Part shown: piece by piece, positions 10,540-31,373 of the stretch
Layout: every line of letters starts with the position of its first letter
Numbering within the stretch: the stretch's first letter is position 1
Assembly: GCF_950100655.1 (NCBI RefSeq)
Contig: NZ_CATNLY010000052.1
Coordinates: forward strand, 124,001-188,000
Origin: Pleomorphomonas sp. T1.2MG-36
GTDB taxonomy: Bacteria > Pseudomonadota > Alphaproteobacteria > Rhizobiales > Pleomorphomonadaceae
Direction of reading: 5' to 3'
Length of the DNA stretch: 64,000 nucleotides
Made by a program: the position numbers and the translations under genes
Notes under the pieces: model-generated
What the model was told of the DNA's origin: nothing
What the model saw: only the letters and a program-made list of their open reading frames with translations
Database searches by the model: none

Positions 10540-10923
10540 ATGGCCTACGCCGTTGCGCTCATTCATGAAGAAGACAACCGCAGTTTTGGCGTGTCTTTCC
10601 CTGATTTCCCCGATTGCCACTCGGCGGCCACCAACCTCAACGACGCGATCGCCCGGGCCGCCGTGGCGCTGGCCGCCCACGTCAAGAACCTCGACGAGCA
10701 GAAGATGCCGATCCTGCGCACGCTCGACGATATCCGCCGCACCCAGGAGCTGAACGAGGCGATCATCGCCGCCGTGCCGGTGGACATGCCGGGCAAGTCG
10801 GTGCCGGTGCAGCTCAGCCTCAACGAGCACCTTCTGGCCGCGCTGGATCGCGCCGCCAGGGCGAGCGGCGTCACCCGCTCGGAGAAGATCGCCGAGGCCA
10901 TCCGCGCCAGTCTTAAGGTTTGA
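10540..10923 (+). CDS. hicB: HicB-family antitoxin (orphan)
   Basis: A 127-residue HicB-like protein. The N-terminal partial RNase-H fold includes GVSFPDFPDCHSAATNLNDAIARA, and the C-terminus (residues about 88-125, SVPVQLSLNEHLLAALDRAARASGVTRSEKIAEAIR in two segments) is a ribbon-helix-helix DNA-binding domain. HicB normally neutralises the HicA mRNA interferase. No HicA-sized gene lies in the 203 bases upstream or the 119 bases downstream, so the antitoxin is solitary here. An AGGAGG stands 6 bases before the ATG. A short family-1 repeat begins 12 bases after the stop. Confidence 0.85.
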   Translation: MAYAVALIHEEDNRSFGVSFPDFPDCHSAATNLNDAIARAAVALAAHVKNLDEQKMPILRTLDDIRRTQELNEAIIAAVPVDMPGKSVPVQLSLNEHLLAALDRAARASGVTRSEKIAEAIRASLKV

Positions 10924-10982: not shown

Positions 10983-11042
10983 GAGCCAGGCGCTAAGCGC
11001 CCCTATATCCCGTCATCGACGCCCCCTCAGGAGGCCACGACC

Positions 11043-11336
11043 ATGCCACGCGATATGTCGCTGCACCCCGGCATCGTCCTCAGCGAAGAGTTCCTCAGGC
11101 CGATGGGGATCTCGGTCCAGGCTCTGGCCGAGGCGATCGGCGTCTCCAGCAGCCTGATGGGCGAGATCTGCAACGGCCGGCAGGCAATGTCGGCCAGCAT
11201 CGCCCTCCGGCTCGGCCGCTACCTTGCCTTCGATCCGCAGTGGTTCATGACCATGCAGTCGAAATACGATCTCTCGGCCGCCGCCGAGGACATGGCCGAG
11301 GCGCTCCAACTCATCCGGCCCTGCGAGGCCGCTTGA
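11043..11336 (+). CDS. HigA-family antitoxin, XRE helix-turn-helix (orphan)
   Basis: A 97-residue protein of the HigA addiction-module antidote family: LHPGIVLSEEFLRPMGIS, then the helix-turn-helix AEAIGVSSSLMGEICNGRQAMSASIALRLGRYLAFDPQWFMTMQ in consecutive segments. No HigB toxin gene is next to it; only 119 bases separate it from hicB. The ATG at 11043 follows AGGAGG by 9 bases. It may act as a plain regulator or be the remnant of a toxin-antitoxin pair. Confidence 0.82.
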   Translation: MPRDMSLHPGIVLSEEFLRPMGISVQALAEAIGVSSSLMGEICNGRQAMSASIALRLGRYLAFDPQWFMTMQSKYDLSAAAEDMAEALQLIRPCEAA

Positions 11337-15551: not shown

Positions 15552-16586
15552 ATGACAATGTACGTAAAGATCATGCCAAACGCTGCCACCCGCATTTCAC
15601 CCCAGGGACCGCTTGCCGTCGCGCTGCTCTACGACGGGCTCTGTACCTTCGAGTTCGGCATCGTCTCCGAGGTGTTCGGCCTCTATAGGCCGGAGATGGG
15701 GCCGGGCTGGTATCGCTTCCTGAGCGCGGCCATCGAGCCCGGTCCGCTCCGGGCGCATGGCGGCTTCACCATCATGCCCGACGAGGGGCCGGAGGCGATC
15801 GACGCGGCCGACATCATCGTCGTGCCCGGCTGGAAGGGTGCCGACGTGCCGGTGCCGGAGGCGCTGTGCGCGCGGCTCAGGGCGGCGCATGGGCGCGGCG
15901 CGCGGCTCGTCTCGATCTGTTCGGGCGCCTTCGTGCTGGCGGCGACCGGCCTTCTCGACGGCGGCACCGTTTCCACCCACTGGCGCTATGCGGAGGCGTT
16001 GCAGCGGCGCTTTCCGTCGGTGACGGTCGATGCCGCCTCGCTCTATCGCGAGCATGACGGCGTGTTCACCTCGGCCGGCAGCGCGGCGGGCATCGACCTG
16101 TTGATCGAGATCGTGCGGCGGGATTTCGGAGCGGAGGCCGCCAACTCGGTGGCGCGGCGGCTGGTGGTACCGGCCCATCGCTCCGGCGGGCAGGCGCAGT
16201 TTCTCGAGCGGCCGGTGCCGGCCCGCCCCACCGGCGAGGTGGCGCCGCTGCTCGACCGGATGCGCGAGACGCTCGGCCGCGACTGGACCACCGAGGCGAT
16301 GGCCGAGGCGTGCCGGATGAGCCTTCGCACCTTCCTGCGCCGCTTCCAGGAAGCCACCGGCGCCAGCCCCGGCGACTGGCTGATCTCCGAGCGCGTCGAG
16401 GCGGCCAAGGGGCTTCTATCCTCCGACGATCTCGCCATCGAGGGGGTGGCCGCCGCCGTCGGCTTCGGCAGCGCCCATGCGCTCCGCCACCATTTCCGCA
16501 AGAAGGTGGGCCTGACGCCGACGGAGTACCGTTCGCGCTTCATCAAGGTGGAGCAAAGGTTGGGCGCGGCACTCCAGCCGGCATGA
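15552..16586 (+). CDS. ftrA: FtrA-type AraC-family regulator (GlxA-like)
   Basis: A two-domain activator of about 344 residues. The N-terminal DJ-1/PfpI-like amidotransferase fold (LAVALLYDGLCTFEFGIVSEVFG to about residue 190) contains the elbow SICSGAFVLAATGLLDGG, and the C-terminal AraC domain (about 225-335) has two helix-turn-helices ending in GFGSAHALRHHFRKKVGLTPTEYR (two segments). It is divergent from the rhodanese gene. The start is uncertain between ATGs at 15552, 15558 and 15573, none with a strong ribosome site. Confidence 0.88.
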   Translation: MTMYVKIMPNAATRISPQGPLAVALLYDGLCTFEFGIVSEVFGLYRPEMGPGWYRFLSAAIEPGPLRAHGGFTIMPDEGPEAIDAADIIVVPGWKGADVPVPEALCARLRAAHGRGARLVSICSGAFVLAATGLLDGGTVSTHWRYAEALQRRFPSVTVDAASLYREHDGVFTSAGSAAGIDLLIEIVRRDFGAEAANSVARRLVVPAHRSGGQAQFLERPVPARPTGEVAPLLDRMRETLGRDWTTEAMAEACRMSLRTFLRRFQEATGASPGDWLISERVEAAKGLLSSDDLAIEGVAAAVGFGSAHALRHHFRKKVGLTPTEYRSRFIKVEQRLGAALQPA

Positions 16587-16607
16587 CGGCTGGAGCGTTG
16601 CTTCCGC

Positions 16608-17789
16608 CTATGGGCGAGACTTTCCGACAAGGTCAGCAAGCGAGCGGACCGCATCCTCCAACTCGCGCTCGGGAAAATCCGCTGCCGCGTCTTCGGGCGT
16701 GGAAACGTCAGGAGCGGCCTTGGCCGCGTCGAGCACCCTTTGCTTGCCGGCCTGCGCCTTGGCGACGAGGTCGCGCACCGGCTGCTCGTAGGCCGAGCCG
16801 AAGCGGCTGACGATATCGTCATAGACGGCAACTGCCTCGTCGCCGCGCCCCAGCGCTTCCAGTATCAGCCCCTTGTTGGCGAGCAGCGTGGCGTGTGCTT
16901 CGCGGCGGTCGCCGCCAAAGGCTCCAGCCAACGTGTCGGCCGTGGTGGCGAGCGTCTCCAGTGCCGCGTCGGCGTGGCCGAGGCGAAACTGGGCGATGGC
17001 GAGGACGTTGCTCGCCTTGGCCTCTTCGACGTCGCCCCGCGCCGCCTCCACCGCGTTGGTGGCACAAAAGAGGGCGGTGTCGCGATCGGCCGCATCGCCG
17101 TCGACATGGGCCCAGGCTTCGGCGATCCAGTAGTCGGCATTGGGGGCGCCGATCCTGAAGCTGCTGCTTGGCTTGGCCGGCAGCCCGGAAAAGCTGGGCC
17201 GGGGCAGGTCGATGGTCAGGGACCTGAGCCAGGTTTCAAGGGCCTCGCGCTCGGCTTTCGTGGGGCTCTTCAGGAAGGCCCATTCGCCGACGTGGTAGCT
17301 TCCCGCCGCCTCGATCCTGCGCCGGAAGTCGAGAACGGCTTTCAGCTGATCGTCCGGCGCGGCCAGCCTGTCGGCGGCGACCTTGCCGAACACTACGGCG
17401 ATGCCGGCCAGCTTGTTTGTCCGGTAGAGCTCCTCGGCAAGGGCCCATTGCTGCGACAGGGCGGACATGGGGCCGACCTCATCGGACGAACTCCAGCGGT
17501 CGTCGACCAGGAACACGGCGAAATCGCTTTGGCGAAGGTCCCGTTCGATCTCGGGCGCCAGGGGCCGTCCTTCTTCGACGCCCGTCTGCGCGTTGGTGGA
17601 CGACAGACCGCAGTCGTCGCGCCGGAAGCTTGAGGAAAAGCTCAAGAGCGCCAGGAACAGTTTGTCGCGCGCGACCTGAAGCCCGGTCCTGCTGCCGATG
17701 AAGACGGAGTATTCGGTGATTGATTGTGCCATCGCACGCCTCTCAATTCGGAGCGGGTCGTCGTTTGTCGCTGCGTCGGGATCGGTCAC
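16608..17789 (-). CDS. TIR/DUF4062-like N-terminal domain fused to a TPR-type module
   Basis: A 393-residue protein of unknown function. Residues about 28-195 look like a Rossmann-type signalling domain of the DUF4062/TIR kind: YSVFIGSRTGLQVARDKL at the first strand, an acidic/aromatic DFAVFLVDDRW strand, and ALAEELYRTNKLAGIAVVFG near the third. This is fold recognition by eye, not proof. Residues about 211-350 share a module with the upstream 999-residue protein, beginning FRIGAPNADYWIAEAWAHVD and ending in one clear TPR-like unit. Its GTG at 17789 overlaps the upstream stop by 4 bases (GTGA) with AGAGG ahead, implying coupled translation; an ATG at 17732 also has a ribosome site. Confidence 0.7.
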   Translation of the reverse strand: MTDPDAATNDDPLRIERRAMAQSITEYSVFIGSRTGLQVARDKLFLALLSFSSSFRRDDCGLSSTNAQTGVEEGRPLAPEIERDLRQSDFAVFLVDDRWSSSDEVGPMSALSQQWALAEELYRTNKLAGIAVVFGKVAADRLAAPDDQLKAVLDFRRRIEAAGSYHVGEWAFLKSPTKAEREALETWLRSLTIDLPRPSFSGLPAKPSSSFRIGAPNADYWIAEAWAHVDGDAADRDTALFCATNAVEAARGDVEEAKASNVLAIAQFRLGHADAALETLATTADTLAGAFGGDRREAHATLLANKGLILEALGRGDEAVAVYDDIVSRFGSAYEQPVRDLVAKAQAGKQRVLDAAKAAPDVSTPEDAAADFPERELEDAVRSLADLVGKSRP

Positions 17790-20785
17790 GTCCGGCCTCT
17801 GCGGAAAAACGCCTCCAGGCGCTTGCCCAATCTCATCATCTTCGTGACGAACCAGTAGATGGGAGATCCACGGGTCTCGCGAATGTTCCGCCCGAGGTGC
17901 GCCGCCGTGGCGCCCATTTCACGGAGCGAGGGCTCTTCTGCGTTGGCGCAGTGCTGATAGAGCTGTTCGAAGCAGGCGGCCGCATCGTCAGTGCGATCGA
18001 GATCGACGAGGATTTTTCCCTTGAGCGCGAGAGCCTTGGCCACCCGCTCACGAAAGGCAAAATCCGCTTCGCGGCCGAAGCGGTCCACGAGTTGGTCGAA
18101 AGCGTCGATGGCATCGTAGCGGTGGTCGGTATTCGCGAGCGTGACGCCCCTGCGCAGCAGCGCTTCGGCGACCTTTTCGCGCAGCGACGTCTCGTACATT
18201 CTTTCGAAGCGGGTGAGGACATCGTCATAGACGGCGACTGCCTCATGCTCGCGCTTGAGTTGTTCGAGATTGATCGCCTTGTGCAACAGCGCATCGGCGA
18301 CGTTGTCGCGCAGCGGCAGATCCGGCTCGGCGCCAAAGCGGTCGACGAGGCTGTCGTAGACGTCGTTGGCATCGTCGGGGCGGCCGATGGCCACGGTTGC
18401 GTCGCCGCGATACAGAATGGCATTGGCGATCTGGGTGCGCAGAGGCAGCTCGCCGGCCGAGCCGAACCGGGCCACGACGTCGCCGTAGACGGCGATCGCG
18501 TCGCGGTGCCGGCCGAGCGCGCCGAGCGTCAGCCCCTTGCACACGAGAGCCACGGCCACCTGTTCGCGCAGGCGCACATCGCTGTCCGTCCCGAAGCGGG
18601 CGATGGCGTCGTCGTAGATGGCGATCGCTTCGTCCTTGTGCGTGAGGCTGGCCTTGAGGACGAGCGCCTGGGCGATATGGATGCGCAGACGCGGATCGGC
18701 CAAAGCCTCGAACTGGTTGATCGCCTTGTCGAGAGCGGCGATCGCCTCTTCCGTCTTGCCTGACATACCCAGAAGCCGCCCATAGTTGACAAGCGCCTGG
18801 GCGGCTTTGACGACGTCGGGCTCGTCGGCGGGCTGGGCGGGTGACCTATCCGCCGGACCGTGTCGTTCAGGCCGGCTTGCGGCGTTCCTGCCGACGGCGG
18901 GGCTGGCAAGACCTTGCGGCATGGATGTCGCGGCTGAACTGGATTTTGCGCTTTCGATCAGCTTGCTCTCATCGAGGTGTTCCTGCCTCTCCGCAAGCAT
19001 CCGGTTTGCCATTTCGCGCATTTCCGGGTCGTCGTCATTGGCCAGTCGGACCAGCAACTCCTCATGGACAAGGTTTGCTTCGTCCGGACGACCGAGGCTT
19101 TCGAGCGCCTCGAACTTACCCAAGAACGCATCGACGACCTCATGGCGCAAGAAGCTGTCGGTTTCGGCGTGGAAGCGATCGATCACATGGTCGAACGCGG
19201 CGAGCGCATCGTCGTGGCGCCCGAGTTTATTGAGCGCACCTCCCTTGCGGACAAGCGTAAGGACGACTCTCTGACGTTGGTAAAGTTCTGTATCGGCGCC
19301 ATAGCGGCCGACGATCTCGTCATAGACGGCGATCTGGTCCTCGGCTTGGGTCAGCAGGTCCGACTTCTTTATCAAGGCCTCGGCGGCCTGTTCGCGCCGG
19401 AGCATGTCGTCTGACTTGGCGAACCGCGCAGCCAGATCGTCCAGGAAGGCAATCGCCTCTTCGGTCCGTCCTCCTGCCTGGAGCGTAAGCCCCCGGCTCT
19501 CCAGGCTGTCGACGACCCAACTCCGCAAGGTATTGTCGGTCTCCTCACCGAAGCGGGCGAGGACGTCGTCGTAGATGGCGATTTCCTCATCGGTGCGGCC
19601 GAGGGTGCCGAGCGCGATCGCCTTGTTGAAGAGGGCCCGGGCGAGTTGTTGGCGCACGCGCAAATCGTCGTCGGCCCCGAAGCGGGCGAGGATATCGTCG
19701 TAGACGACGATTGCCTCGGGGCTGCGATCGAGAGCGGCGAGGGCAACTCCCTTGTCGGTTAGCGACTGGACCAGAACTTGGCGCAGGGTCAGGTCGGTCT
19801 CCTCGCCGAAGCGGGCTAGAATGTCGTTGCAAACGGCGATCGATTCTTCGTCGCGTCCGACCGTGGCGAGCGTGATCTCCTTGTTGATAAGGGCGAAGGC
19901 AACGAGCTCGCGCAGTTTGGGTTCGGTGGCCGTGCCACAGCGGGCGATGATGTCGTCGTAGATGGCAATCTCTTCGTCGCTGCGTCCGAGTTCACCGAGC
20001 GTAGCCCCCTTTTTGATAAGGGCGCTGGCGACGCGTTCGCGAAGGTCGGGATCGGTCGAGGTGCCAAAGCGGGCTATGATGTCGTCGTAGATGGCGAGCT
20101 TCTGTTCGCCTTGCTCCTTGTCGTCGAGCAACCGCGCTGTGTTGGCGAGCGCTGAGGCAACGATCACGCGGAGGGGCGGCTCGGTTGCCTTGCCGAAGCG
20201 GCTGACGATCTCCTCGTAGACGGCAGTCGCGTCGCTGGTGCGCCCAAGCTGTCCCAGAACGTCGGCTTTTTTCCCGAGAGCCTTGCCGACGCATTCGCGC
20301 GTGACGTGCTCGGTGGCTGTCCCGAAGCGGGCGACGATTTCGTCGCAGACGGCGATCGCTTCGCCGTCGCGCTTGTAGGCGGCGAGCACCAGCGCCTTGT
20401 TGGTCAGCGCGGCGGCGTGGAGCCCGCGACGATCGGTGTCGGTGAAGGCCGAGAGTTTCTCGACGATGTCGTCGAAGGCGGCGATGGAGGCGGCGAAGTT
20501 GCCCCGGCGATAGGATGCGATGCCCCAGGCCATTTTCGCCTTGGCCCACTCGGCGTCGCTTCTCGATGTTGCGACCGCCTTGCTCGCCCAGTAGAGCGCG
20601 GCGGTATGGTCGCCCGCTTCGTCGTCGAGGGCGGCCGACGCCTCGGTCAGGCAATAGTCGAAGCTGGGGGCGCCGATCCGGAAGCCACGGTTCGGGTCGG
20701 GCCGCCCGGCAAAGGCGTCGCTTTCCGTTGGCAGGGATTGCGAGGCGCCAAGGGAGGCGTCGGTTGGGTGGATCGCTTTGGGCAC
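17786..20785 (-). CDS. Giant TPR-like repeat protein (about 19 units of 43 residues)
   Basis: A 999-residue soluble protein with no signal peptide. Residues about 35-175 form the same module as in the following gene (FRIGAPSFDYCLTEASAALD). Then come about eleven repeats, a disordered Ser/Pro/Ala linker near 605-650, and about seven further repeats. The period is a constant 43 residues, longer than the 34 of a standard TPR; the consensus is roughly A-L-x-x-K-G-x-x-L-x-x-L-G-R then EAIAVYDDIVARFG. The last 45 residues are basic and aromatic (FVTKMMRLGKRLEAFFRRGR). It is the first gene of a two-gene operon. A scaffold or sensor partner of the TIR/DUF4062-like protein is an inference. Confidence 0.8.
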   Translation of the reverse strand: MPKAIHPTDASLGASQSLPTESDAFAGRPDPNRGFRIGAPSFDYCLTEASAALDDEAGDHTAALYWASKAVATSRSDAEWAKAKMAWGIASYRRGNFAASIAAFDDIVEKLSAFTDTDRRGLHAAALTNKALVLAAYKRDGEAIAVCDEIVARFGTATEHVTRECVGKALGKKADVLGQLGRTSDATAVYEEIVSRFGKATEPPLRVIVASALANTARLLDDKEQGEQKLAIYDDIIARFGTSTDPDLRERVASALIKKGATLGELGRSDEEIAIYDDIIARCGTATEPKLRELVAFALINKEITLATVGRDEESIAVCNDILARFGEETDLTLRQVLVQSLTDKGVALAALDRSPEAIVVYDDILARFGADDDLRVRQQLARALFNKAIALGTLGRTDEEIAIYDDVLARFGEETDNTLRSWVVDSLESRGLTLQAGGRTEEAIAFLDDLAARFAKSDDMLRREQAAEALIKKSDLLTQAEDQIAVYDEIVGRYGADTELYQRQRVVLTLVRKGGALNKLGRHDDALAAFDHVIDRFHAETDSFLRHEVVDAFLGKFEALESLGRPDEANLVHEELLVRLANDDDPEMREMANRMLAERQEHLDESKLIESAKSSSAATSMPQGLASPAVGRNAASRPERHGPADRSPAQPADEPDVVKAAQALVNYGRLLGMSGKTEEAIAALDKAINQFEALADPRLRIHIAQALVLKASLTHKDEAIAIYDDAIARFGTDSDVRLREQVAVALVCKGLTLGALGRHRDAIAVYGDVVARFGSAGELPLRTQIANAILYRGDATVAIGRPDDANDVYDSLVDRFGAEPDLPLRDNVADALLHKAINLEQLKREHEAVAVYDDVLTRFERMYETSLREKVAEALLRRGVTLANTDHRYDAIDAFDQLVDRFGREADFAFRERVAKALALKGKILVDLDRTDDAAACFEQLYQHCANAEEPSLREMGATAAHLGRNIRETRGSPIYWFVTKMMRLGKRLEAFFRRGRT

Positions 20786-20982
20786 CGGTAGACCTCACGC
20801 TCTCGCAGGTGGTTCTCGACCCTCGGTGACCACGCGCGGTAGTGGAGGATACCCAAATTTCTACTGAAGCGACAAGTCGGCTTCCACAGGCGATTGGTAT
20901 GTAGTTACCGGGTCTTGGGGGGCGGTCTCGGCCTTGGCGGGGGCCCGTAGCGGTTCGATCCTCGCTTCGTGCCGGTCGGGTG

Positions 20983-21693
20983 TCAGTCGGGTGTCGGGCG
21001 CAGGTCCGGGGCCTCCGCGCCGAGACGGAGCGCCACCAGCTCCTGAAGGCGCCAGAGGTTGCGGTCGTGGATGCCGAGCTGTTCGAGATGGGCGACGGTG
21101 TTGCGCAGATACTCGGCGCCGGAGCCCACATGGCCGCAGGCGCGCGCAAGCGTTTCGGCCACCTGTTCCAGGGATTGCTTGGCGACGACATAGCGCCCGG
21201 TCGGCGCGACCCAGAAGCACAGCGTCCGGACCTTTCGCCCGTCGATCATGCAGGTGATCCAGCGGGCGAAGCGCAGGTTTTCCGGGGTGTCCACCTCGCG
21301 CCGCAGCAGTTCGGTCAACGCCGCCAGCCGGTCCTCCTGGCGGACGCGGAAGGCGACGCCCTTGCAATTGCCGCCGCGCTGCAAGGCCATCATCAGGCCC
21401 GGCCCGGACGGGGTTCCGCGCCATCGCCGCAGCGGGATGCAGAACGAGCGATGCCAGCCGTGGGCCACGGCGAGCCGGGTTTCCTCGGGCTCGAAAACCG
21501 GTTTCCAGATCAACGAGCCGTAGGCGAAGATCCACAGCTCGTCGCCGGCTTCGGCGTCGAGCCGCGCCGCCTCGGCGACAAACGCGTCGTCGCCGAGCAG
21601 CACCTCGTCGGCGTCCGGGCCAGGGTCGACCTCGGTTCTCAGGGTTTTGGCGACCAGCTCTTCCGTAAGCATCATCCGGCGGGCAGGCGGCAT
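20983..21693 (-). CDS. chaC: ChaC-type glutathione-specific gamma-glutamylcyclotransferase
   Basis: Degrades glutathione to 5-oxoproline and Cys-Gly in the cytoplasm. The 236-residue protein carries the family signature [10 protein letters not shown] (about residues 55-64), then [19 protein letters not shown] and a late [19 protein letters not shown] is 6 bases before the ATG. It lies 197 bases from the TPR operon and in the same orientation, with copZ upstream; I see no sign that these form one operon. Confidence 0.9.
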
Positions 21694-29400: not shown

Positions 29401-31242
29401 CTAGTGTTTGTGCAGGCGTTCCTTGCCGGCTTCTGCAACGGCGACCCACAATCCTAGAATAGGTTCGGTCGTGCCACCAAATTGGACGATGGCGGCGTCA
29501 TAAGCGGCGATCGCATCGTTAGGACGCCCAAGTCCTTCTAGTTTTAACCCCTTGTTTATGAACGCTTTAATGGCTAGCTCCTGCAGGGCGGATTCGGTCG
29601 TGGTGCCATAGTGGACGATGAAGTCGTCTAGGGCGGCGAGAGTTTCGTCGTTACGCCCAAGCCTTTCGAACGCCCCTGCTCTGTTAAAGCGCGCCCTCGC
29701 CACTTGCTCGCGCAAGGACAGTTCAGTTGCACTGCTGTAGCGGGTAACTACGTCATCGTAGGTCGCGAGCGCCTCATCGCTGCGTCCAAGCCCATCGAGG
29801 ATCATTCCCTTGCTCACGAGCGCAAAAGCAACCTGCTCGCGTAGGGGCAGCTCAGGTGCCGTGCCGTAGCGGACGACGACTTCATTGAAGACTGCCTTCG
29901 CGTTCTCTTGACGCGCAAGTTTGCCGAGCGCACGCGCCTTCATCGCGAGCGCCCTGGCCACTGCTTGGCGCTGAACCAACTCGGTAGCCGCGCCGAAACG
30001 GACAACGAGGTCATCGCAAGCCGCAATCGCGTCTTCATAGCGCTTGATCTCGGTGAGAGTATCTCCCTTGCTTAGGAGCGCTCTGGCGACAATCTCACGT
30101 GAGGGGAGCTCGGCGGCTATTTCGATCAGGTGTGGATCGGTCTTTGCTCCGAAGCGGGCTACGATGATGTCGAAGATGGCGAACGCATCTTCGTGGCGCC
30201 CAAGCTTGTCGAGTATCCTCGCCTTGTTCAGATATGCCTTGCCGACATAGTCACGGATGGATGATTCTGGTGCCGTGTCGTAACGGGAGATGACTAGGTC
30301 ATAAGTGGTGATCGCGTCTTCGGTTCGCCCGAGTAGGTCAAAGGATACGCCTTTGTTGTAGAGCGTCATGGCTACAGCGTCACGTATGCCCGCCTCCTTC
30401 GCTGTGCTGTAGCGATTGACGAGGTCGTCACCGACGGCGAAGGCTTCGTCGTTACGCCCAAGTGCGCGGAGCGCTGTTGTCTTGTTCAGAAGGGCCATGG
30501 CGACTTGCACGGGCTGGGACAACTCGGTTGTCTCGCTGAAGTGTAGAGCGACATCGTCATAGACCATGATCGCCTCGTCGAAGCGATCGAGTGCCGCCAG
30601 CCGTTGTCCCTTGTTGACAAGCACCCTGGCAATCGCCCTGCGGGCGGGTATGCTGGCGTCCGCTCTCAAGCGAGCGATGATGTCGTCGTAGACAGCGATC
30701 GCAGCCTCGTTGTGGCCCAGTTCTCCAAGCGCGAACCCCTTGTTATCGAGTGCGTTGAAAACGCTTTCGCGCAAGGGCCGTTCGGTAGCTGCTCCTAAGC
30801 GGGTGATGACCTCATCAAAGACGGTAATCGCCTCGTCGGAGCGATGTTGACGGGAGAGCGCAGCCCCCTTGTTCACGTAAGCCCGTGCGACTTGCACGCG
30901 CAGGTTCAATTCAGTGGCGCTTCCAAAGCGAGCGATGACCTCATCGTAGATTGCAATCGCTTCATCAAGAGAGCCGCGGTCATAAAGATCATTTCCCTTG
31001 GACATGAGCGCGGTAGCTATCCGCCTGCGAGACAACGGGCCGGCCTCTTTTCCAAGGCGGCCGATTGTGTGGTCATGGTTCGCGATGTCGCGATCGGTGG
31101 ATTGGGAACGGGCGGGATTTCCCGCCAAGGCTGGCGCAACGACATTGTGGAAGCCTCCCAGCACCATGGCAAAGGCGATGGCACCACACAGGACACGCGC
31201 GGGCTTTGCAGAAAAGCGGACAGGCTTGGCGCTGCTGGACAT
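29401..31242 (-). CDS. Secreted TPR-like repeat protein
   Basis: A 613-residue protein with a probable signal peptide: a basic start, a hydrophobic stretch GAIAFAMVLGGF and an APALA-G cleavage site near residue 41, so it should act in the periplasm or outside. About 12 repeats of roughly 43 residues follow from residue 75 (for example KGFALGELGHNEAAIAVYDD), the same type as in the giant TPR protein at 17786-20785. No other domain is visible. Base composition is less G/C-rich than the neighbours. ATG at 31242 was chosen for the signal peptide; the frame is open to 31329. Its 5' region resembles that of ade. Confidence 0.75.
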   Translation of the reverse strand: MSSSAKPVRFSAKPARVLCGAIAFAMVLGGFHNVVAPALAGNPARSQSTDRDIANHDHTIGRLGKEAGPLSRRRIATALMSKGNDLYDRGSLDEAIAIYDEVIARFGSATELNLRVQVARAYVNKGAALSRQHRSDEAITVFDEVITRLGAATERPLRESVFNALDNKGFALGELGHNEAAIAVYDDIIARLRADASIPARRAIARVLVNKGQRLAALDRFDEAIMVYDDVALHFSETTELSQPVQVAMALLNKTTALRALGRNDEAFAVGDDLVNRYSTAKEAGIRDAVAMTLYNKGVSFDLLGRTEDAITTYDLVISRYDTAPESSIRDYVGKAYLNKARILDKLGRHEDAFAIFDIIVARFGAKTDPHLIEIAAELPSREIVARALLSKGDTLTEIKRYEDAIAACDDLVVRFGAATELVQRQAVARALAMKARALGKLARQENAKAVFNEVVVRYGTAPELPLREQVAFALVSKGMILDGLGRSDEALATYDDVVTRYSSATELSLREQVARARFNRAGAFERLGRNDETLAALDDFIVHYGTTTESALQELAIKAFINKGLKLEGLGRPNDAIAAYDAAIVQFGGTTEPILGLWVAVAEAGKERLHKH

Positions 31243-31296
31243 TCGGGCTGGTCTCGGTTGGGAAAGCCCACCGGCCGGTCCGATCAGGCCATGCCA
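31199..31296 (-). repeat. 5' region of the TPR gene resembling that of ade
   Basis: Partner of 29201-29306. It covers the first 14 codons and about 55 upstream bases. Similarity ends abruptly after the SAKP residues, at the signal-peptide core. Confidence 0.55.
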
Positions 31297-31373
31297 GATT
31301 AGCGGCCTCGGGTGGTTGTGCAAGCGCAATCGGGGGTGGTGCCTTTCCCTATGCCGGCCCGCATTGGCGTCGC

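What the first reader, a model, noticed from the sequence alone, without database searches (positions are those of the whole stretch)
16608..20785. Two-gene operon: TIR/DUF4062-like protein plus giant TPR array, sharing a module
The genes overlap by 4 bases. Both contain an approximately 140-residue paralogous module that starts FRIGAP and ends in a TPR unit. One has a Rossmann-type candidate effector domain; the other is a long helical scaffold. Effector-plus-repeat-sensor pairs are common in bacterial immunity and signalling, but I know of no described system with this layout. No defence function is shown by the sequence itself.
Basis: partly seen in the sequence, partly recalled or inferred. 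Interest (0 to 1): 0.72.

Follow-up and report, generated by a model that had tools for sequence, protein, structure and literature searches.

The report
Dead TIR-like enzyme with TPR partner
A two-gene cassette pairs a long protein-binding repeat protein with a relative of a newly described phage-defence enzyme that seems to have lost its catalytic residue, so it probably works as a sensor-and-adaptor pair or is a decayed remnant rather than as an enzyme.

Summary
The observation largely holds. Gene A (17786-20785, -) is a 999-aa protein with 18 TPR units of about 43 residues. Gene B (16608-17732, -) has a TIR-like domain followed by a cap-plus-TPR module 43% identical to the N-terminus of A. 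The 4-base overlap needs a GTG start; relatives favour the ATG at 17732, leaving 53 nt between the genes. B's N-terminal domain is a remote homologue of DUF4062, reported in a 2026 preprint as a TIR-like NADase ("Swarozyc" phage defence). The column of the catalytic Glu (KpSwz E97, TEP1 E1008) is Gln95 in B, but Glu in its three nearest relatives (DUF4062-cap-TPR in one gene). Of residues invariant in those relatives, B keeps 43 of 85 in the TIR-like domain and 18 of 24 in the cap/TPR module, so the loss is concentrated in the enzyme domain. None of four relatives has an A-like neighbour. The pair is missing from the same site in the three congeners examined. I read it as a gained cassette made by duplicating a single-chain NADase: copy A became a TPR receptor, copy B a non-catalytic TIR-like adaptor; decay is the main rival. 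Defence is not shown. New variant of a known kind.

The parts
17786..20785 (-). Gene A: 999-aa TPR array protein (cap + 11 TPR units + linker + 7 TPR units + C-terminal tail)
20396..20689 (-). Cap module of A (residues 33-130, begins with FRIGAP), paralogous to B
   Evidence: 43% identity to B in the BLASTP alignment, E 2e-29; tree split {A,B} versus three relatives, support 0.89
18920..20371 (-). First run of 11 TPR units of about 43 aa
18809..18919 (-). Ser/Ala/Pro-rich linker between the two TPR runs
   Evidence: Sequence itself, printed
17867..18808 (-). Second run of 7 TPR units
16608..17732 (-). Gene B from its likelier ATG start: 374 aa (393 aa from GTG 17789)
   Evidence: Relatives start at the same place
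17217..17732 (-). TIR-like / DUF4062-homologous domain of B (residues 1-172)
   Evidence: hhalign 98.2%, E 3.8e-14; AF2 pTM 0.68; TIR matches
17448..17450 (-). Gln95 (CAA) in the column of the catalytic Glu
17490..17492 (-). Ser81, in a column that is Gly in all 18 DUF4062 domains of alignment A8
16743..17165 (-). Cap plus one TPR unit of B (residues 190-330)
16567..21003 (.). Extent of the cassette: absent between conserved flanks in three congeners (edges +/- about 25 bp)

Best explanation
The cassette descends from a single-chain DUF4062 (TIR-like NADase)-cap-TPR protein of the kind still found in relatives. A duplication gave two genes: A has the cap and a long TPR array and no TIR-like domain; B kept the TIR-like fold, the cap and one TPR unit, but lost the catalytic Glu and other active-site residues. 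Most likely mechanism (inferred): A and B pair through their related caps; the TPR array of A binds a trigger protein or peptide; B acts as a non-catalytic TIR-like adaptor or regulator, possibly by joining assemblies of an active TIR-like NADase such as the canonical DUF4062 protein of the same genome. Shown by computation: homology, likely fold, loss of the catalytic residue, module sharing, presence as a unit at a site empty in congeners. Inferred: the order of duplication and loss, pairing, trigger binding, adaptor role, any link to defence.
Against: 0 of 4 relatives has an A-like neighbour, so conservation gives no support for an A-B interaction. The ten neighbouring proteins scanned are mostly regulators, housekeeping, metal or stress genes; the only conflict-related one is a HicB-like antitoxin about 5.7 kb away. 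PADLOC gives nothing for B and two marginal hits (E 0.03-0.04) for A. The cap of A keeps 13 of 24 positions invariant in the relatives, no better than the relatives' 54-65%. An adaptor role and simple decay both predict loss of catalytic residues; without close orthologues dN/dS could not be measured.
Confidence: 0.5

Rival explanations
1. Decaying remnant: a once active DUF4062-cap-TPR defence gene that duplicated, lost its enzyme activity and is on the way out.
For: 42 of 85 conserved positions lost in the TIR-like domain, including the catalytic Glu and the Trp-Glu of the GWE motif; no conserved partner; found in 1 of 20 family genomes.
Against: Both frames are intact with strong codon-position bias. 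The shared module of B is as conserved as in relatives, and Arg22, invariant in the family alignment, is kept. In a GC-rich genome an open frame alone is weak evidence.
Confidence: 0.27
2. Active two-gene defence effector: B still degrades NAD (or another nucleotide) with rearranged catalytic residues, triggered by A.
For: TIR-like fold likely kept; Glu100, five residues after the Gln, is conserved in B and the three relatives; DUF4062 NADases are phage-activated (PMC13174449, parts 1-2 of 6 read).
Against: Activity needs this Glu in KpSwz and TEP1 (same preprint); the invariant Gly and the GWE Glu are lost as well.
Confidence: 0.12
3. Not immunity: an ordinary TPR scaffold pair, for example in envelope or stress physiology, that uses a TIR-like domain as a protein-binding domain.
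For: Metal and stress genes around it. The genus also carries TPR arrays of the same unit type with an apparent signal peptide (window 29401-31329 and three congeners).
Against: Patchy presence and an empty site in congeners are usual for defence and other accessory genes. The nearest relatives are DUF4062 proteins with the catalytic Glu intact.
Confidence: 0.11

Closest known systems
Swarozyc (KpSwz), DUF4062 TIR-like NADase (PMC13174449; PDB 10wc, 11cq, 11cv)
   Same: Homologous TIR-like domain at the N-terminus followed by an auxiliary part
   Different: Gene B lacks the catalytic Glu; its auxiliary part is cap+TPR, not the winged/HTH portal-binding domain; a second TPR gene is present
DUF4062-cap-TPR single-gene proteins found here (G180, G741 frame-split, G1151)
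   Same: Same domain order and same cap; 426 and 344 aa in the two unbroken copies
   Different: Catalytic Glu intact; no A-like gene beside them
Rhodococcus erythropolis R138 plasmid DUF4062 protein WP_030002991.1
   Same: DUF4062 plus TPR repeats in one chain
   Different: Glu intact; other TPR type (tblastn of A finds nothing there); the cap does not align well; no TPR in the 8 neighbours scanned
Plant RPS4/RRS1 TIR pair (the pairing logic is recalled)
   Same: Paired immune proteins in which one TIR is thought not to be the enzyme; a chain of the heterodimer (4c6t_D) is the top Foldseek match and RRS1 TIR (4c6s) the fourth
   Different: No relation shown beyond the fold; no NLR architecture here
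SPARTA TIR-APAZ/Ago (PMC10474274, passages read)
   Same: TIRs act as assemblies in which a neighbour contributes to the active site, so a non-catalytic TIR could matter
   Different: Argonaute-based, nucleic-acid triggered

Membership tests
DUF4062 (Pfam PF13271) | Score over the curated cut-off (24.7 bits) | tested here: not met
   No DUF4062 match for gene B at E <= 1; relatives L013, L044, L065 pass
DUF4062 (Pfam PF13271) | Homology to the family by profile comparison | tested here: met
   hhalign of A8 against B residues 1-181: probability 98.2, E 3.8e-14
Swarozyc / DUF4062 NADase | Catalytic Glu (KpSwz E97, TEP1 E1008) | tested here: not met
   Gln95 in B; column fixed with 10wc and 11gz; 26 of 27 matches reaching the column have Glu
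Swarozyc / DUF4062 NADase | Auxiliary winged/HTH domain that binds the phage portal | tested here: not met
   The C-terminal part of B is a TPR-like helical module
Swarozyc / DUF4062 NADase | NAD hydrolysis and phage protection | not testable with these tools
   Needs experiment
TIR-like fold | Five-stranded parallel sheet with flanking helices, matched by TIR structures | tested here: met
TPR repeat protein (gene A) | TPR models over cut-off and a regular period | tested here: met
   TPR_6 89 bits against 26.3; period 43
TPR-S (PF20308) sensor of conflict systems | Full-length match to the TPR-S model | tested here: inconclusive
   A passes the cut-off (34.7 against 27.6 bits), but its best stretch covers profile 4-49 of 102 and ordinary TPR models score higher
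Conserved two-gene system | Homologues occur as neighbours in other genomes | tested here: not met
   0 of 4 relatives examined

The most novel reading that the evidence does not exclude
A bacterial two-component receptor built from a catalytically dead TIR-like NADase and a duplicated TPR partner: the dead DUF4062 acts as adaptor or dominant regulator of active DUF4062/TIR assemblies, while the 18-repeat protein senses the invader. This would be a bacterial counterpart of paired immune receptors with one non-enzymatic TIR.
Probability: 0.2. Interest if true: 0.75.

Novelty: new variant of a known kind. Interest (0 to 1): 0.5.

Why it matters
The one paper found that gives DUF4062 a function is a preprint of May 2026, which reports an NADase that stops phage by killing the infected cell. 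A lineage in which the enzyme domain lost its catalytic residue while its interaction module stayed conserved, next to a duplicated, longer TPR partner, makes it possible to ask whether TIR-like domains in bacterial immunity can work without catalysis, as adaptor TIRs do in animals (recalled). It also suggests how a single-chain sensor-effector may be split into two genes. If it is instead a decaying system, it documents how such systems are lost.

Tried and rejected
Rejected: a conserved effector+sensor operon (0 of 4 relatives examined has the pair); a plain NADase effector (catalytic Glu gone); the FRIGAP module as a separate domain type (helical, TPR-like). Considered: TPR-S membership of A (partial match only).

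Led nowhere: tblastn of B in plasmids found nothing. A scan of genome contigs with B found three TPR loci only. PDB searches with single sequences found nothing; only the 18-row profile found KpSwz and TEP1. The full-length model of B gave mainly TPR matches. No sigma-70-type promoter, and 6 terminator-like sites against 3.8 expected (sd 2.1), in 16500-21100. A DUF4062-subfamily search of 209 class genomes found only the own genome. In a cap search of 398 phylum genomes only the two genes of the own genome matched from column 1; the other matches in the list began at column 37 or later. Pattern scans of viral contigs with A found nothing; the intact relative found nothing in phage records. Literature searches for inactive bacterial TIRs and for TPR sensors gave listings from which I read only passages of PMC10474274.

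Weak points: the leave-one-out counts rest on four sequences, and B lies outside the clade of the other three; the module is the internal control. The genome searches sample 1,990 genomes, overlaps included. In one search, 45 comparators were aligned and 41 have Glu; the four others are L058 (Gln) and L138, L140, L141 (His, Asp, Asp), whose profile matches stop before the column. Nine short matches are left out of the 27; three matches had no locus and were not examined. One earlier run mis-handled loci on the minus strand and was replaced. Of 13 other congeners searched, four had a ChaC match; I examined the three at 88-97% identity, not G019 (38%). In G012 the AraC/DJ-1 region lies beside another gene, so it says nothing on the empty site.

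Full report
WHAT IS THERE. On the minus strand, gene A (17786-20785) encodes 999 residues and gene B (16608-17789 from GTG, or 16608-17732 from ATG) encodes 393 or 374. A has a strong 43-residue period, 18 TPR units in runs of 11 and 7 with a mean identity of about 35%, and passes the cut-offs of several TPR models. Neighbouring units average 54% identity in DNA (maximum 74%), so a recent expansion is unlikely. B has a Rossmann-like N-terminal part and a C-terminal part that matches residues 18-177 of A at 43% identity, E 2e-29. The three nearest relatives start at the position of the ATG at 17732, which I take as the likelier start; the gap is then 53 nt.

WHAT DUF4062 DOES. A preprint of May 2026 (PMC13174449; I read parts 1 and 2 of 6 and further passages) reports that DUF4062 proteins are TIR-like NADases, that KpSwz gives abortive infection after binding the phage portal, and that Glu97 (Glu1008 in human TEP1) is needed. 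Of four human DUF4062 proteins tested only TEP1 was active. The words TPR and tetratricopeptide do not occur in its main text.

B HAS LOST THE CATALYTIC RESIDUE. The 18-row profile finds the solved KpSwz and TEP1 chains. The KpSwz chain carries Ala exactly in the column that is Glu in all 18 rows; my count along the chain fits the E97A protein. TEP1 has Glu there. In B that column is Gln95. Of 27 DUF4062 matches that reach the column and have a locus, 26 have Glu and one (L058, a protein that by eye also has a TIR-like part) has Gln; 9 of 9 further relatives have Glu; the raw count over all 45 comparators is 41. Of the three invariant columns in A8, Arg is kept in B (Arg22), while Gly is Ser81 and Glu is Gln95. 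The three members of the same subfamily (G180, G741, G1151) have EEE followed by W or F; B has SQQW.

THE LOSS IS CONCENTRATED IN THE ENZYME DOMAIN. Of 85 positions invariant in the three relatives, B keeps 43 (51%) in the TIR-like domain; when each relative is left out in turn, that relative keeps 84-98%. In the cap/TPR module B keeps 18 of 24 (75%) against 58-69% for the relatives; A keeps 13 of 24 (54%) there, against 54-65%. The same phylogeny underlies both parts, so the contrast in B is not due to its place in the tree alone. Codon-position G+C is still coding-like in the domain (0.64/0.47/0.83).

ORIGIN. The relatives are single genes of the order DUF4062-cap-TPR: G180 (426 aa), G1151 (344 aa) and G741 (frame-split in the linker). 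tblastn of A in the loci around them (14-19 kb) hits only the relative's own gene; around the Rhodococcus plasmid gene with DUF4062 and other TPRs it finds nothing, and 8 neighbours there have no TPR match. The caps of A and B are closer to each other (43%) than to the others (30-37%), with tree support 0.89. In G014, G017 and G015 the AraC/DJ-1 gene and the ChaC gene lie about 60-100 bp apart, with window positions of about 16566 (16541 in G015) and 21004 (21014) next to each other. B's TIR-like domain was not found in the 19 other family genomes searched. The simplest account is gain of a cassette whose two genes arose by duplication of a fused gene: A without the TIR-like domain and with a long repeat array, B with a non-catalytic TIR-like domain and a single TPR unit.

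HOW IT MAY WORK. Inference: related caps hold A and B together; the TPR array of A is the binding surface for a trigger; B contributes a TIR-like surface without catalysis. TIR NADases act as assemblies in which a neighbour contributes to the active site (PMC10474274, passages), so a dead TIR-like domain could nucleate or block assemblies. The same genome carries a canonical DUF4062 gene with its Glu about 31 kb away (C52:108443-109423, GC3 0.48), a conceivable partner, but nothing links them. Decay is the main rival.

WHAT IS NOT SHOWN. No defence function, no interaction, no expression. Of the ten neighbouring proteins scanned, one is conflict-related (a HicB-like antitoxin); the rest are regulators, metal, stress and housekeeping genes.

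Noticed in passing
Own genome contig C52:108443-109423 (L060:13444-14424, -), outside the window: A canonical DUF4062 protein (327 aa, SYTQMEYEY motif with the Glu) with GC3 of 0.48, while the window has 66.6% G+C: probably a recently gained Swarozyc-like gene.
   Followed up: partly
window 29401-31329 (-): A second TPR-array gene with the same 43-aa unit and an apparent signal peptide (by eye); in three congeners TPR arrays lie next to the same adenine deaminase gene (L094, L095, L096); no blastn match at the site in G014 and G015.
   Followed up: partly
L072:4476-6878 (+): IMG/VR contig: a protein with an N-terminal hydrophobic segment, a coiled-coil-like part and about 11 of the same TPR units, beside tail-like phage genes (by eye).
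   Followed up: no
L163:4091-6250 (+): G1151 also encodes a protein with an NTPase-like (GAGGTGKS) part followed by the same TPR units, so these arrays occur in receptor-like proteins (by eye).
   Followed up: no
L058, minus strand: A protein of the same order with a TIR-like part (by eye) and a DUF4062-like domain that has Gln in the catalytic column: a second possible dead DUF4062.
   Followed up: no
L066:5001-9221: Rhodococcus qingshengii plasmid: an IS21-family element lies between a DUF4062-like stretch and a TPR gene.
   Followed up: no
L044:8314-8317: The G741 relative is split into two reading frames in the linker between the DUF4062 and cap parts.
   Followed up: no
window 10540-10923 and 11040-11336 (+): HicB-like antitoxin followed by a small HTH protein; I did not look for their partners.
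   Followed up: no
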